This document shows positions 38,114 to 44,498 of a DNA stretch of 64,000 nt, piece after piece. The notes under the pieces are model-generated. The model was not told the origin of the DNA. It worked only from the letters and a program-made list of their open reading frames with translations, and ran no database searches. Within the stretch, counting starts at the first letter, position 1. The number at the start of each line of letters is the position of its first letter. The DNA lies in assembly GCF_000739695.1 (NCBI RefSeq), contig NZ_BBIO01000006.1:62001-126000 (forward strand), read 5' to 3'. This DNA is from Tepidicaulis marinus. Its GTDB lineage: Bacteria; Pseudomonadota; Alphaproteobacteria; Parvibaculales; Parvibaculaceae. Made by a program: the position numbers and the translations under genes.

Positions 38114-39478
38114 ATGGAAAATATCGACCAGGAAACCTTGAACGCATTCGCGGGTAAGGCAGAGACGTGGCTGGAGCGCCTGTTGCTTTGGGGGCGGGAG
38201 GAATTTCTCAGTCTCGATATGGCCGCCGCGCTCGGCGCCGTGGCCGTGGCCGCAGCCGTTTTCTGGGCCATGCGCAAATGGGCGCTGCCGCTGCTTTATA
38301 CCGCCGCCGGAAAGATCAAAGCCGGGTACTGGGTTCATATGCGCTTGCAGCGGCTTGCCGAACTTACGCCCGCTCTTGCCGCCTTGCTGTTGCTGGGAAC
38401 CATGAATGCCGGCCTGTTGCAGGCCGGTTTCTCACCCGATGTCTCGCGCATCGCCGCCCAGCTCTTGACGGCGTGGATCATCATCAAATTCGCCGTCCTG
38501 ATCCTGAAGGATTCCGCCTGGACGCCGGTGCTGGCAGGCTTCGTGTGGACAGTGACGGCGCTGGCCATTGTCGGCTGGCTCGATCCTCTGATGATGGTTA
38601 TGGACCAGGTGGGATTTTCGATGGGCGAGTTCCGCCTGTCGCTGCTGGGCGTGGTGCAGGCAGCGCTGCTCTTTGCCGTTTTGATGTGGGTGGCCGCGCT
38701 GATTTCCCGCGTCTTGGAAAACCGTCTCGGCCGGCTTGCCGGGGTGACGCCCTCCGCGCGTGTGCTGGTCGGCAAGATCATCCATATTCTTTTCCTGGCT
38801 TTCGCCGTGATGGTGGCGCTGACCAGTGTCGGCATCGATTTTACCGCCATCGCCGTCTTTTCCGGGGCTGTTGGCGTTGGCATCGGCTTTGGCTTGCAGA
38901 AAGTCGTTTCCAACCTCATCAGCGGGATCATTCTGCTACTCGACCGCTCCATCAAACCGGGCGATGTAATCGAGATCGGTGACGCCTATGGCTGGATCGA
39001 AAAACTGGGCGCGCGCCATGTCGCGATCATCACCCGTGACGGCAAGGAATTTCTCATTCCCAATGAAGATCTGATCACCCAGCAGGTAATCAACTGGTCT
39101 TATACGGACAAGATCGTGCGCTTTAAAATCGGGGTCGGTATTTCCTACCGCTCCGATGTGCGCAAAGCCATGGACTTGATGCTGGAGGCGGCAGACGGGA
39201 TCGACCGGATATTGAAAGACCCGCCGCCGGCCGTGCGCCTTGTCGGTTTCGGGGACAGCTCCGTCGATCTGGAACTGCGCATTTGGCTGAAAGATCCGGA
39301 AAGCGGCACGGTCAACGCGATGAGCGACGCGCGGCTGCGCATCTGGGATCTTTTTCATGAAAACGGGATCGAGTTTCCGTTTCCGCAGCGCGATTTGCAT
39401 ATCGTGTCTGCCGAAGGACTGGAGACGATCATGCAGCGCGCCAGGCCCAGTGCCGGAGAAGATGCCGGAAAGCGCTAG
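38114..39478 (+). CDS. Mechanosensitive ion channel family protein (MscS-like)
   Basis: A 454-residue membrane protein with about five helices followed by the MscS core. The pore helix is rich in Gly/Ala (FSGAVGVGIGFGLQKVVSNL), with the beta domain IKPGDVIEIGDAYGWIEKLG and a C-terminal alpha/beta domain. It is larger than E. coli MscS because of extra N-terminal helices. It relieves osmotic downshock by opening under membrane tension. Its TAG stop shares the palindromic CTAG with the stop of the convergent TpsB gene. Confidence 0.92.
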   Translation: MENIDQETLNAFAGKAETWLERLLLWGREEFLSLDMAAALGAVAVAAAVFWAMRKWALPLLYTAAGKIKAGYWVHMRLQRLAELTPALAALLLLGTMNAGLLQAGFSPDVSRIAAQLLTAWIIIKFAVLILKDSAWTPVLAGFVWTVTALAIVGWLDPLMMVMDQVGFSMGEFRLSLLGVVQAALLFAVLMWVAALISRVLENRLGRLAGVTPSARVLVGKIIHILFLAFAVMVALTSVGIDFTAIAVFSGAVGVGIGFGLQKVVSNLISGIILLLDRSIKPGDVIEIGDAYGWIEKLGARHVAIITRDGKEFLIPNEDLITQQVINWSYTDKIVRFKIGVGISYRSDVRKAMDLMLEAADGIDRILKDPPPAVRLVGFGDSSVDLELRIWLKDPESGTVNAMSDARLRIWDLFHENGIEFPFPQRDLHIVSAEGLETIMQRARPSAGEDAGKR

Positions 39479-41217
39479 GTGTTGAAATTCCAGCTGAGGC
39501 GGATATTGATCCGCCCGTCCCGCGTGCCCGTTTCGATATCGGCATCGCCCAGCGGATAGGCATATTCGATCCCGAGCCGGTAGTGCTTCGTGTCGGATAT
39601 CTCGAAACCGGCAACCGCGGATGTCAGATCGTGCTCGATCGAGATGTCGTTGAAGCGTGTATGAGCGGTATCGGCCAGGACATAAGGTTCGAACGTTTGC
39701 AGCCAGGCGATACCGAGCGGCTGGATATAGCGCAGCTCGAGATCGCCCGCATAACCGTAATCCCCTTCCGCCTGACCGTCCGGATAAGCGCGGCCGAAAC
39801 GGGCGCCGCCATAATTGCCCCGTTCCGGGCTCGGTAGCCTGTCATTCGACCAGAACCCAGCCGCCCGCGCCGTCACGCGCCAGCGCTCGGCAATTTGCTC
39901 GGCCCAGCGGCTATTGGCGGCAAGGCGGGTAAACTCCGTGTCCTCTGCCTGCTGACTGGTGACGCCGCCAAGGGAGACCGTGTTGCGGTTCTCGCCGAGA
40001 TCGACGCCTTGGCGGATTTCCCCGCGCAGTTCCACCAGCCGCTCCTTACTGATGAGGCGCAGCGCGCTGTTGAGTTCCGCGGCGGTATACCGCAGCTCCT
40101 GCTGCGCGCGCACCGATGGCTGGCCGGGAAGCGAGAACGTGTAATTCGATTCTTCATCGTAATAATCGATACCGCCTGCTACGTCCCAGGTCTTCTCGCG
40201 CCTAAGGACCAGGGGATAAGCAAGGCCGATATGATATTTGTTGCGGACCTTATCTTCATTGACGTTGATGGCCTGTCCCAGCACGAAAACCTGATCGTCG
40301 TCCTCGCCTTCAAAGCGGTTGGCATTGAGCGTGATGCGCAGCCCGTCCGTACCGATTTCCTGTTGGTATTCGGCGGCGTAATATTCTTCGTCTTCAATAG
40401 GGGCGAGCGCGGCGAGCGACAACTGCTCCCCGAAAGGTGTGTGCCCTTGCGTGCTGACATTGGCAAGCAGAAGAAAGTCGTCTTCATCCCCGCCATCGAG
40501 CGAGCCGCCGAATCCGAAGCGCTCGATCTCTTTTTCTTCCACCCTTAAGGTTGTCGCGCCATTGGCCGTGCGGGGAACCGGCGCGCGCATGGTCAGCTTT
40601 GCGCCGGGAATACGCTCCATAAGCTGGGTATAGCGCTCGAAAGTGGCGCGGGTGAGCGGCACTTCGCCGATCAGCCGGTCCGCAAGATCGGCGACACGCT
40701 CTGCCACCGCTTCGTTTTCGATCTCGATTTCCGTGCGCACGATATGGCCTTCGACAATGACGATGGTGACGACACCGTCGGCAAAATTGTTTTCAGGCAG
40801 ATAAGCGTAGGAGAGCGGGTAGCCGGCTTCCTGATAGCGCTGCGTGATTTTGCGCGCGGCAAGGGCGAGGTCCGCCAGCCGGGCTTCTTGCCCCACCAGG
40901 TGCTTGAGGTCCTGGGCAAGCAGTTCGAGATCGAACACGCTGCCGCCGAGAAACTTGATATGAGAAACGGGGATAACCGTGTCTGGATCGAGCCCTCCTT
41001 GGGCATCCGGCAGATTGATTTCGGCTCCCTCGCGGTCGAGCGGAATATCGAGCGCATCGCGCAATTGCGGCGATGTCGTCGGCTGTTTCTCATCGATGAC
41101 GGCGGGCAGGTCGTCGGCAAGAACGGGCGTGTTCAACCCGCTAAGCAGCAATCCTGCAATGACGGTGCGCGCGCTTGCATTGACTGCGCCGCGCAGTTTC
41201 ATAGGCCTATTTGGCAT
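39475..41217 (-). CDS. ShlB/FhaC/HecB-type two-partner secretion transporter (TpsB)
   Basis: A 580-residue outer-membrane protein. A signal peptide (to about VLADD) is followed by POTRA-type repeats (ISHIKFLGG-like segment and then NNFADGVVTIVIVEGHIV) and a C-terminal beta-barrel ending in RINIRLSWNF. TpsB proteins export large TpsA exoproteins across the outer membrane. No TpsA with a TPS domain is visible; instead two Gly/Leu-repeat lipoprotein genes lie upstream on the same strand. The ATG at 41217 is chosen because GGGAGGGGGGACC precedes it. Confidence 0.88.
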   Translation of the reverse strand: MPNRPMKLRGAVNASARTVIAGLLLSGLNTPVLADDLPAVIDEKQPTTSPQLRDALDIPLDREGAEINLPDAQGGLDPDTVIPVSHIKFLGGSVFDLELLAQDLKHLVGQEARLADLALAARKITQRYQEAGYPLSYAYLPENNFADGVVTIVIVEGHIVRTEIEIENEAVAERVADLADRLIGEVPLTRATFERYTQLMERIPGAKLTMRAPVPRTANGATTLRVEEKEIERFGFGGSLDGGDEDDFLLLANVSTQGHTPFGEQLSLAALAPIEDEEYYAAEYQQEIGTDGLRITLNANRFEGEDDDQVFVLGQAINVNEDKVRNKYHIGLAYPLVLRREKTWDVAGGIDYYDEESNYTFSLPGQPSVRAQQELRYTAAELNSALRLISKERLVELRGEIRQGVDLGENRNTVSLGGVTSQQAEDTEFTRLAANSRWAEQIAERWRVTARAAGFWSNDRLPSPERGNYGGARFGRAYPDGQAEGDYGYAGDLELRYIQPLGIAWLQTFEPYVLADTAHTRFNDISIEHDLTSAVAGFEISDTKHYRLGIEYAYPLGDADIETGTRDGRINIRLSWNFNT

Positions 41218-41302
41218 ACCGGTCCCCCCTCCCAAGGTCGCCGCGTCCAGACCATTGTGCCGGTTATGGCTGGATTTACAACAATACAGATTTTACGAAA
41301 GG

Positions 41303-41365: not shown

Positions 41366-42621
41366 TTAAAGCCCGCCGGTAAGACCGCCGAGCAGGCCGC
41401 CAAGCAACCCGCCAACGGCGCCACCGTCTTCACCGTCTCCTGTGCCGGTGTCGCCGGCAAGGCCGCCATCGAGCCCGCCGCCGAGCAGCCCGCCGCTCTC
41501 ATCGCCGCTGCCGCCGGTTAGGGCCCCGGTGAGCCCGCCGGTAAGACCGCCAAGCAGTTGCGTGCCGCCATCGAGCCCTGTGCCGCCGCCCGAATCACCG
41601 CCGGATAGGCCGCCAGTCAGGCCGCTCGTCAGATTGCCGGCCAGGTCGCCCGAAAGCCCATCGGAGAGCCCGCCGGAGAGCAGGCCGCCGCCGCTCTCCC
41701 CGCTGCTCAGCAAGCCGCCGGTTGCCGAGACAAGCTGGCCGCTGCTCTCAAGCGTGGTCCCCAGACCTGAAAGCGCTGCATGCTGGCTACCCAGTTCGCC
41801 GCCAAGCGCAACGACCGCGCCGCCGCTTTTATCGAGAAGGCCGCCAAGCGCAGGGCCGATGACCAAAGCGTCGCCGACCGACTGCGTGGTGTCTTCCGTT
41901 TTGATGACAAGCGGGCGGACAACGCCGGTCAGCTCGGTTGTCAGGCCGGCAAGCTGTGCATCTTCGGCGGTGAACTCCAGCGCGAGACCATTGCCGGTCT
42001 GCGTGATCTTGCCGCCCAGATCGCCGACCGTGCCGCCGAGTTTGGTGAGCGCGCCGGTTGTCTCATCGACTTGCATGAAGACGGGCAGGGTGTTGAGCGC
42101 AGTCACGGTGTTGCCTGCTTCGCTTACCGCTTCGCCGGTTTCGGCGACGGTGCCAGCCGCGCCGGCAAGTGTTGTACCGATTGCGTTGTCGTTCTCGCTG
42201 AGGTTTCCAAGGCCGTCATTGAGACCGGTGCTCAGCGCGTTGATGCCTTCGCCAAGCTCGATAATGATGCCGCCCGTGCCGCTTGTTACGGCGCCGATTA
42301 GCGGAACTTCCTGCTGGCTGATGCCTTCGCCGATCACCGTAACCGTATCGCCGATGCTTCCCGTCGTGTCGCCCGCAGATTGGATAAGGTTTTCGGTGGC
42401 GAGTGTCTCAGCTTCCGCGCCGCCGGATCCGCCGTCTGGCAGACCGCCGGACCCATCACCGGACCCGCTGCCATTGTTGTTTGACCCGCTGCTGTCCGTA
42501 CCAGATCCGCCCAGGGCGTGGCTTGAATCGGTACTGCCAGCGCAGCCTGCAAGAAGAAAAGGCAGGCTGCATAAAGCAGCAAGAAGGGGGAAGATCGGAA
42601 AACTTGCTTTCGTTCAATCAT
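41366..42621 (-). pseudogene. Glycine-rich 'collagen-like' lipoprotein, frameshifted near its start
   Basis: The long frame (41366 up to about 42616) encodes a lipoprotein: hydrophobic segment, lipobox LAGC, a Gly/Ser/Asp linker, a conserved ATENLIQSAGD region and a C-terminus of GGLTGGL-type repeats. However, the only ribosome binding site (GCAGGAG) and ATG (42619-42621) lie in a different frame, and a TGA blocks the lipobox frame just upstream with no ATG/GTG/TTG between. A one-base indel between about 42598 and 42616 would join them. The intact part starting at a GTG (42337) would lack a signal. The paralogue at 42921 has a normal start. This may be a real mutation, slippage or sequence error. 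Confidence 0.72.
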
Positions 42622-42884: not shown

Positions 42885-42913
42885 GGTGCAGGCGGCGTAT
42901 CGCCGCCTGCACC
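42885..42913 (-). terminator. Perfect 13-bp hairpin after collagen-like gene 2
   Basis: GGTGCAGGCGGCG (42885-42897) and CGCCGCCTGCACC (42901-42913) form a 13-bp stem with a 3-nt loop, 7 nt past the stop codon. No U-run follows, so it may be an RNA-end stabiliser or a Rho-assisted terminator. Confidence 0.5.
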
Positions 42914-42920
42914 ATCTTCA

Positions 42921-44141
42921 TTATTGGTCGCTGCCGCTAAGTCCGCCGGTCAGCCCGCCGATCAGACGGGTCACCGGATTGGCTTCCTCACCGTCTTCGC
43001 TGCCGCCGCTGAGGCCGCCCGTCAGTCCGCCGACGAGGCCGGTAACAGGATCAGCGCCTTCGCCGCCGACAAGGCCGGTCAGCTGGTCGGTGGGAAGACC
43101 GCCTTCCGTCAGGCTGCCCAAGAGATCGTCCGTCGGCAAGCCGCTATCCGTCAGCTGGCCGAGCACGGCGTCGGTGGGTAGGCCCGCACCCTCCCCGCCG
43201 CTCAGCGCGGCCAACAGCGTATCGGTCGGCAAGCCGCCGCCGGTCAGTCCGCCGCCCGATCCCTCGCCGGAGGAGATGAGGCCGCCTGTGTCACGGACCA
43301 ACGCGCCGGCACCACCGACGGACCGCGCGACGCCCGTGAAGGCTGCATTTTGATCGGCAAGTTCATCACCCGCCATTGTGATTGCGCTGCCAGCTTCGGA
43401 AAGAAGCTCACTACCCATGGGACCAATGACGATTGCATCCCCGACTTTCCGCGTAGTGCCTTCCACGTTCGCCACTATCGGACGAATGGCAAGCGTGAGC
43501 TGTCTGCTTGCGCTGCCGAGGGGGCTATCGGGGTCTTCAAATTGCAGGGCGACACCTTCTGCGCCTTCCGATATCTGAAGACCGAGTTTACCGATATTCT
43601 CACCTACCATCGTTAACGCGCCGGAGTTTTCCTCAACTTGCAGAAAAACGGGCAGGCTATCGAGTGCGGCAACGGCTCTCCCAGACGCGGACACAGCATC
43701 GCCTGTGCTCGAAACGGCTTTAGAAGTTCCTGCCGCGGTAGTACCGACCGCATTATCGTTTGTTCCCAGAGAACCCAGTCCGTCATCCAGCCCCTTGCTG
43801 ACTTGGTAAACGCCCGAACCCGTCGAACCGAGCATATGGATTGTGTGGTCTTGCAGTTCCTGATCGAGTGGCAGATCTTCCTGGCTGACGGCTATTCCCG
43901 CAAGGAATAGGGTTTGGCCAACGCCTTGAGTTATGGTCGCTGCATCCTGAACGATATTCTCTGTCGCTTGCGTTTCACTCGCAGGCTCGGCACTGCCACC
44001 GCCGCCCCCGCCACCATCGCCAAGTCCAGCGCCGGGGCCGTCGGAGCTGCTGCCGCAGGCGGCAAGCGTAAATGAAATTGCAAAGGCCAATGGCGCGGCG
44101 CGCCAGAAAGGGTGCCCAAGTGGGGTAAAGGTCGTGCGCAT
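42921..44141 (-). CDS. Glycine-rich 'collagen-like' repeat lipoprotein
   Basis: A 406-residue lipoprotein. The signal peptide ends in the lipobox LAAC (Cys near residue 29), followed by a poly-Gly linker (GDGGGGGGGS), a conserved helical-looking middle (ATENIVQDAATITQGVGQT through PVFLQVEENSGALTMVGENI), and a repeat tail of GLPTD-x-LL units and GGLTGGLSGG. It is homologous to the frameshifted gene at 41366. Such proteins are often labelled collagen-like triple helix repeat proteins, although strict Gly-x-y periodicity is not kept. Probably surface-exposed; the nearby TpsB may act on it, which is inference. Confidence 0.78.
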   Translation of the reverse strand: MRTTFTPLGHPFWRAAPLAFAISFTLAACGSSSDGPGAGLGDGGGGGGGSAEPASETQATENIVQDAATITQGVGQTLFLAGIAVSQEDLPLDQELQDHTIHMLGSTGSGVYQVSKGLDDGLGSLGTNDNAVGTTAAGTSKAVSSTGDAVSASGRAVAALDSLPVFLQVEENSGALTMVGENIGKLGLQISEGAEGVALQFEDPDSPLGSASRQLTLAIRPIVANVEGTTRKVGDAIVIGPMGSELLSEAGSAITMAGDELADQNAAFTGVARSVGGAGALVRDTGGLISSGEGSGGGLTGGGLPTDTLLAALSGGEGAGLPTDAVLGQLTDSGLPTDDLLGSLTEGGLPTDQLTGLVGGEGADPVTGLVGGLTGGLSGGSEDGEEANPVTRLIGGLTGGLSGSDQ

Positions 44142-44147
44142 GGTAAT

Positions 44148-44274
44148 CTCCTCCGCTGCGTACCGTGAGTTCGCCGTGCCTCATGGCAGGGCGGTCCCGT
44201 ACGCCTCACGTTACGCTTCCATCTCTGGAAGCTTTTCCATGCCCCAGCTGCACCGTGCAGCTCCCCTCATGGAA
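44148..44274 (-). promoter_or_regulatory. Structured 5' leader upstream of collagen-like lipoprotein gene
   Basis: On the minus strand three hairpins stack before the start codon. First: TTCCATG/CATGGAA (44268-44274 with 44235-44241) enclosing a GGGG/GGGG internal loop and an 8-bp AGCTGCAC/GTGCAGCT stem. Second: GCTTCCA-GAGA-TGGAAGC with a GNRA tetraloop (44215-44232). Third: a 12-bp stem with one mismatch (44205-44216 with 44158-44169) enclosing a smaller hairpin. The ribosome binding site GGAGGAG (44148-44154) starts 3 nt after the last stem. The layout suggests a riboswitch, thermosensor or protein-bound leader; no known class was recognised. Confidence 0.5.
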
Positions 44275-44301
44275 GACTCTTTAGCAGGAAAATTTTGTTG
44301 G

Positions 44302-44315
44302 CTACAAGATTGTAG
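44302..44315. promoter_or_regulatory. 14-bp palindrome upstream of the leader
   Basis: CTACAAGATTGTAG is a perfect inverted repeat with 6-bp arms, inside a wider imperfect dyad (GGAA near 44288 to TTCC near 44331). It is about 160 bp upstream of the collagen-like lipoprotein start, a reasonable operator position. Confidence 0.4.
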
Positions 44316-44346
44316 GTGCCGAAAAAATTCCCTGTGCGGAGGGTCT

Positions 44347-44371
44347 GGAACTTTCGCGGATTTGCGGCGTT
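44347..44371 (+). promoter_or_regulatory. GGAAC-N16-CGTT promoter (general stress EcfG/SigT type)
   Basis: GGAAC (44347-44351) and CGTT (44368-44371) are separated by 16 nt, matching the alphaproteobacterial general-stress sigma (EcfG) promoter pattern. It points into a region with no protein gene on the plus strand but an intrinsic terminator about 125 nt on. Confidence 0.5.
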
Positions 44372-44377
44372 TGTTGC

Positions 44378-44498
44378 GTCTTGCAAATTTTCAGATCGCA
44401 AACTAAATGTCTGATTTTTATTACAGATTCAGAATCTATTAATCTTTGTAGAGATGAAAAAATGCCCTCGAAACGCACGCTTCGAGGGCAAATTTTTT
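44378..44498 (+). ncRNA. Candidate stress-induced small RNA
   Basis: About 120 nt between an EcfG-type promoter and a strong intrinsic terminator, with no plus-strand reading frame of significance. The body is AT-rich and contains a hairpin AGATTC/GAATCT (about 44426-44438) and then the terminator stem. The arrangement recalls stress-sigma-dependent sRNAs such as Caulobacter GsrN, without visible sequence identity. Ends are inferred from promoter and terminator only. Confidence 0.35.
44457..44498. terminator. Bidirectional intrinsic terminator
   Basis: A perfect 10-bp stem TGCCCTCGAA/TTCGAGGGCA (44463-44472, 44481-44490) is flanked by A6 on the left (T6 on the minus strand) and AA-T6 on the right. 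It can end the minus-strand phosphotransferase transcript (stop at 44519) and any plus-strand transcript from 44378. Confidence 0.85.

What the first reader, a model, noticed from the sequence alone, without database searches (positions are those of the whole stretch)
44148..44274. Multi-hairpin 5' leader with a GNRA tetraloop before the collagen-like lipoprotein gene
Three stacked hairpins with long near-perfect stems, including a GCTTCCA-GAGA-TGGAAGC hairpin and a symmetric GGGG/GGGG internal loop, end 3 nt before the Shine-Dalgarno sequence. The order and tightness go beyond random GC-rich folding and suggest a ligand, temperature or protein-sensing leader. I could not match it to c-di-GMP, cobalamin, SAM or ROSE elements.
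Basis: partly seen in the sequence, partly recalled or inferred. Interest (0 to 1): 0.62.

Follow-up and report, generated by a model that had tools for sequence, protein, structure and literature searches.

The report
Hairpin-rich mRNA leader, one genus
The start of the messenger RNA for a collagen-like surface lipoprotein folds into three strong hairpins that are kept in the one available sister species and found nowhere else we looked; it is probably an ordinary structured leader that tunes expression of one gene, and nothing yet shows that it senses anything.

Summary
The hairpins are real. On the minus strand, 44274-44158 holds H1 (7+7 bp, AGGGG/GGGG internal loop), H2 (GCUUCCA-GAGA-UGGAAGC) and H3, ending 3 nt before the Shine-Dalgarno sequence (SD). 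The leader folds better than all 200 dinucleotide shuffles (z = -3.9), but about 1.3% of 150-nt stretches in this window do as well. New here: conserved AAUUUUCCUGCU (44294-44283) can pair with AGCGG-a-GGAGAUU (44157-44145), closing H1-H3 into a four-way junction that covers the SD. This stem is weak evidence: chance complementarity is common, and it loses to other folds once about 40 nt of coding sequence are included. Rfam matches nothing. A covariance model finds the leader only in this genome and its single sister species (UBA4490), not in 40 family/order or 385 class genomes. Between the two species, 8 of 9 changes avoid the stems (1/94 paired vs 8/60 unpaired columns), but no stem shows a compensatory change, so covariation is untested. 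Other Collagen_mid genes mostly lack such leaders. Computed SD accessibility barely changes with temperature. Best reading: a genus-restricted structured 5' UTR that sets mRNA stability and translation. A ligand riboswitch is possible but unsupported.

The parts
44309..44314 (-). possible -10 element TACAAT; would place the RNA start near 44302
   Evidence: read from sequence and identical in the sister species; the sigma-70 scan calls no promoter here because no good -35 exists; inference
44283..44294 (-). 5' strand of possible closing stem P1, AAUUUUCCUGCU (anti-SD)
   Evidence: MFE and centroid in both species; probability 0.90-0.96 with at most 12 nt of coding sequence, 0.06-0.34 with 41-90 nt
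44235..44274 (-). H1: UUCCAUG-AGGGG-AGCUGCA-CGG-UGCAGCU-GGGG-CAUGGAA
   Evidence: no paired base changed between the two species
44215..44232 (-). H2: GCUUCCA-GAGA-UGGAAGC, GNRA-type tetraloop
   Evidence: pair probability 0.95-1.0 in both species in all contexts tried; unchanged in the sister species
44158..44210 (-). H3: inner stem CGCC.UGCC/GGCA.GGCG plus competing outer stems A (CGUGAG/CUCACG) and B (GCGUAC/GUACGC)
44145..44157 (-). 3' strand of possible P1, AGCGG-a-GGAGAUU, containing the SD GGAGGAG (44154-44148)
42921..44141 (-). gene 1: collagen-like lipoprotein (lipobox LAAC), PF15984 Collagen_mid
   Evidence: Pfam 98.6 bits against cut-off 31.1
44345..44447 (-). 103-bp block without any substitution against the sister species, upstream of the possible promoter; candidate activator-binding region
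   Evidence: runs of at least this length occur nine times in 35 kb, and the intergenic region as a whole is not exceptional
44463..44490 (-). intrinsic terminator of the upstream phosphotransferase gene; separates it from the leader
   Evidence: 12-pair stem with T-run; one compensatory and two wobble-preserving changes between the species

Best explanation
A lineage-specific structured 5' UTR of about 155-160 nt that works in cis on the mRNA of the collagen-like lipoprotein. Inferred steps: transcription starts near 44302, after the upstream terminator. H1, H2 and H3 form as the RNA emerges and leave little single-stranded RNA for RNase entry, and the SD is partly covered by the 5' anti-SD strand, so the leader fixes mRNA stability and a moderate translation rate without a dedicated ligand. 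Shown: the hairpins (computed), their retention in a second species, and the concentration of changes in unpaired positions. Not shown: the transcript itself, the start site, SD covering in cells, and any effect on expression.
For: Fold better than 200/200 shuffles here and 199/200 in the sister species. 1/94 paired against 8/60 unpaired columns changed, Fisher p 0.0024; with the structure taken from this genome alone, 2/108 against 6/59 substituted, p 0.024. H2 and the inner stem of H1 are robust in every context tried. The terminator at 44490-44463 separates it from the gene upstream. Single copy in the genome, so not a repeat element. No conserved leader peptide: the small ORF at the H1 AUG has two stops here and runs out of frame in the sister species. 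Computed SD accessibility hardly responds to temperature.
Against: No expression data. Only two sequences, about 95% identical, and no compensatory change. The whole intergenic region is conserved like other intergenic regions of this segment (93.4%, range 84-94.5%). P1 is near what chance complementarity gives: 3.5% of shuffled flanks and 16% of random 28-mers pair as well with the SD. The mechanism (stability against translation) is not distinguished by sequence.
Confidence: 0.45

Rival explanations
1. A regulated switch: a ligand-, protein- or sRNA-responsive four-way junction in which P1 covers or frees the SD (an orphan translational riboswitch or similar).
For: P1 closes H1-H3 and contains the SD in both species, with all 12 pairs unchanged. 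H3 has two competing outer stems. GNRA loop unchanged. Precedent for riboswitch control of a surface adhesin: C. difficile CD2831, c-di-GMP (PMC6447587).
Against: No Rfam match. Not found outside two sister species, in one copy, before one gene. P1 is mostly lost with 40 nt of coding sequence. The A/B choice in H3 is not shared by the two species.
Confidence: 0.2
2. An RNA thermometer (ROSE- or fourU-like) covering the SD by U-rich pairing.
For: UUUU lies opposite GAGA of the SD in P1.
Against: Computed SD openness stays 0.53-0.61 (own) and 0.43-0.55 (sister) from 10 to 60 C. The anti-SD is more than 120 nt from the SD rather than in one hairpin with it. The gene is not a heat-shock gene. No Rfam ROSE or fourU match.
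Confidence: 0.05
3. No RNA function: chance folding of a GC-rich intergenic region, or DNA-level sites (inverted repeats bound by a regulator) that happen to fold.
For: About 1.3% of windows here fold as well. Region conservation is ordinary for intergenic DNA of this pair. No covariation. Related genes do without it.
Against: Changes avoid the paired columns. The fold is retained with a similar z in the sister species.
Confidence: 0.25

Closest known systems
E. coli ompA 5' UTR mRNA stabiliser
   Same: Structured leader of an envelope-protein gene, with hairpins before a strong SD (ompA facts: own knowledge; works cited in PMC7509114)
   Different: No sequence relation claimed; no half-life data here; the SD here may be partly covered
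Translational riboswitches with the SD in the closing stem
   Same: Multi-helix junction closed by a stem that contains the SD (possible)
   Different: No ligand, no family match, no distribution across genes or genera, weak P1
C. difficile c-di-GMP riboswitch before the adhesin gene CD2831
   Same: RNA leader before a surface adhesin gene (PMC6447587)
   Different: No c-di-GMP riboswitch model matches this leader
ROSE / fourU RNA thermometers
   Same: U-rich pairing with the SD is possible
   Different: Different layout, no match, no computed temperature response
Collagen_mid lipoproteins of Burkholderia (BCAL1523/BCAL1524/BCAM0695)
   Same: Same protein family as gene 1; these genes are reported as strongly induced on host-membrane contact (PMC10224339)
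   Different: That report concerns the proteins; among the family members examined here most leaders are not structured

Membership tests
Any Rfam 15 family | score at or above the gathering cut-off | tested here: not met
   0 matches in the window at gathering; best at E 10 is Mu-gpT-DE, 13.4 bits against 49
c-di-GMP, cobalamin, SAM and other known riboswitches | conserved aptamer core recognised by the covariance model | tested here: not met
Riboswitch (any) | ligand binding that changes expression | not testable with these tools
   needs in-line probing and reporters
Riboswitch (any) | covarying conserved structure across species | tested here: inconclusive
   two sequences only; 0 compensatory pairs, 46 of 47 pairs invariant
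Riboswitch (any) | expression platform (terminator or SD covering) | tested here: inconclusive
   no minus-strand terminator in the leader; SD-covering P1 depends on the fold context
RNA thermometer (ROSE/fourU) | SD in a stem that melts in the physiological range | tested here: not met
   flat computed SD accessibility, 10-60 C; computation only
Leader-peptide attenuator | conserved short ORF with diagnostic codons | tested here: not met
   ORF MRGAARCSWGMEKLPEMEA* here; stop lost and frame shifted in the sister species
ompA-type mRNA stabiliser | hairpin at or very near the 5' end of the transcript | not testable with these tools
   transcription start unknown; the possible -10 would leave about 27 nt before H1
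ompA-type mRNA stabiliser | leader prolongs mRNA half-life | not testable with these tools
   needs half-life measurements
PF15984 Collagen_mid (downstream gene) | Pfam score above the cut-off | tested here: met
   98.6 bits against 31.1

The most novel reading that the evidence does not exclude
A narrow, previously undescribed cis-regulatory RNA: a four-way junction (P1, H1, H2 with GNRA loop, two-state H3) whose closing stem contains the ribosome-binding site of a collagen-like adhesin-type lipoprotein, switched by a ligand or RNA-binding protein.
Probability: 0.12. Interest if true: 0.55.

Novelty: new member of a known kind. Interest (0 to 1): 0.25.

Why it matters
If the leader regulates, it would add an RNA layer to control of Collagen_mid lipoproteins, a family linked to host-membrane contact in Burkholderia (PMC10224339), and would be a test case for very narrowly distributed structured leaders that family-based RNA discovery misses. 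If it is only a stabilising or tuning 5' UTR, it is of local interest.

Tried and rejected
Rfam at gathering and E 10: nothing. Second copies of the leader in the genome by BLAST and covariance model: none. Weak model hit in G011 (E 0.01): it lies inside the C-terminal coding part of an SRP-type GTPase gene, rejected as chance. Class and order searches and R1 on 22 relatives' loci: none. Plasmid and phage collections: none. Structured leader as a trait of the Collagen_mid family: rejected, most relatives have z between -2 and +1.5; L042 (-6.0) and L044 (-3.5) are exceptions not followed up, and the start used for L036 (-2.8) is not reliable. Leader peptide: rejected. Shared promoter motif elsewhere in the genome: the best hit lies in coding-like repetitive sequence, rejected. 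Alternative pairing of the repeated UUCCA/UGGAA segments (first with last, second with third): probability 0. Thermometer: no computed response.

Full report
What is there. The GAGA loop fits GNRA. The internal loop of H1 is 5 nt against 4 nt, so it is almost but not strictly symmetric. The fold beats 200 of 200 dinucleotide shuffles (z -3.89). A scan of the whole window on both strands puts this at about the best 1.3% of 150-nt stretches; it is unusual, not extraordinary.

Folding from about 44308 adds a 12-pair closing stem, P1, between AAUUUUCCUGCU (44294-44283) and AGCGG-a-GGAGAUU (44157-44145), which contains the Shine-Dalgarno sequence. H1, H2 and H3 would then sit in a four-way junction. 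All 12 pairs are the same in the sister species. Two cautions apply. A 28-nt flank pairs this well with the SD in 3.5% of shuffles and 16% of random window 28-mers. P1 probability drops from 0.9 or more to 0.06-0.34 when 41-90 nt of coding sequence are included. H3 itself has two competing outer stems; the two species prefer different ones.

Evolution. The genus holds only one other available species, represented by the MAG Rhodobiaceae bacterium UBA4490. The leader is 95% identical there. Nine columns differ (8 substitutions, 1 insertion): one in a paired column, where this genome has a C-C mismatch and the sister a G-C pair, and eight in unpaired columns (Fisher p 0.0024; for the structure from this genome alone p 0.024). 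Because the structure was chosen on these same sequences, the first p-value is optimistic. No pair shows a compensatory change. As a positive control, the 12-pair terminator upstream shows one compensatory and two wobble-preserving changes over the same divergence. The intergenic region as a whole is not more conserved than others in the 35-kb aligned segment.

Distribution. A covariance model finds the leader once in each of the two genomes and nowhere else in the 40 family/order genomes or 385 class genomes. The one weak hit is inside a coding sequence. It is absent from plasmid and phage records. The gene family is scattered (13 of 399 phylum genomes over the cut-off) and within this taxonomic family passes the cut-off only in this genus. 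Upstream regions of 22 relatives' loci give no match to the model and are mostly not more folded than shuffles. The leader therefore belongs to this lineage, not to the protein family. The model was built from two near-identical sequences, so very divergent homologues could be missed.

Mechanism. There is no minus-strand terminator within the leader, so control by termination is unlikely. The short ORF beginning at the H1 AUG is in frame with gene 1 but has two stops here; in the sister species both stops are sense codons and an insertion shifts the frame, so it is neither a conserved leader peptide nor an N-terminal extension. Computed SD accessibility is nearly constant from 10 to 60 C, which argues against a thermometer. 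What remains is a structured 5' UTR affecting mRNA stability and translation (favoured, 0.45), a regulated SD-covering switch (0.2), or no RNA function (0.25). The favoured mechanism is an inference by analogy with structured leaders such as that of ompA (own knowledge; works cited in PMC7509114).

Comparison and novelty. Nothing in Rfam matches. The leader is filed only as a further structured 5' UTR, a known kind; membership in riboswitches or thermometers is not claimed. The protein family has been described as adhesin-like lipoproteins induced on host-membrane contact in Burkholderia (PMC10224339), and a c-di-GMP riboswitch controls a C. difficile adhesin gene (PMC6447587). These make regulation plausible but are not evidence for it here.

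Noticed in passing
window 42586-42590 (minus strand): The second Collagen_mid gene (about 42621-41366, minus) is frameshifted in its signal peptide: CCCCC here against CCCCCC in the sister species, where the lipoprotein signal peptide (LLLAGC) is intact. It could be an assembly error, a pseudogene, or short-tract phase variation.
   Followed up: partly
window 39475-41235 (minus strand): A ShlB/FhaC-type two-partner-secretion transporter gene (POTRA_2 and ShlB matches) follows the two collagen-like genes directly; a possible secretion partner.
   Followed up: no
window 44345-44447: A 103-bp intergenic block without a substitution against the sister species, near short palindromes such as AGATTCTGAATCT and TTGC-AAGAC-GCAA; candidate binding sites for an activator of a promoter that lacks a good -35.
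   Followed up: partly
L042, 150 nt upstream of the Collagen_mid gene: A strongly folding leader (z -6.0) before a distant relative of the gene in another family; no match to the model R1.
   Followed up: no
window 42885-42913 (minus strand): Long inverted repeat GGTGCAGGCGGCG-ATA-CGCCGCCTGCACC just after gene 1, without a T-run; possibly a transcript-end or mRNA-protecting hairpin.
   Followed up: no
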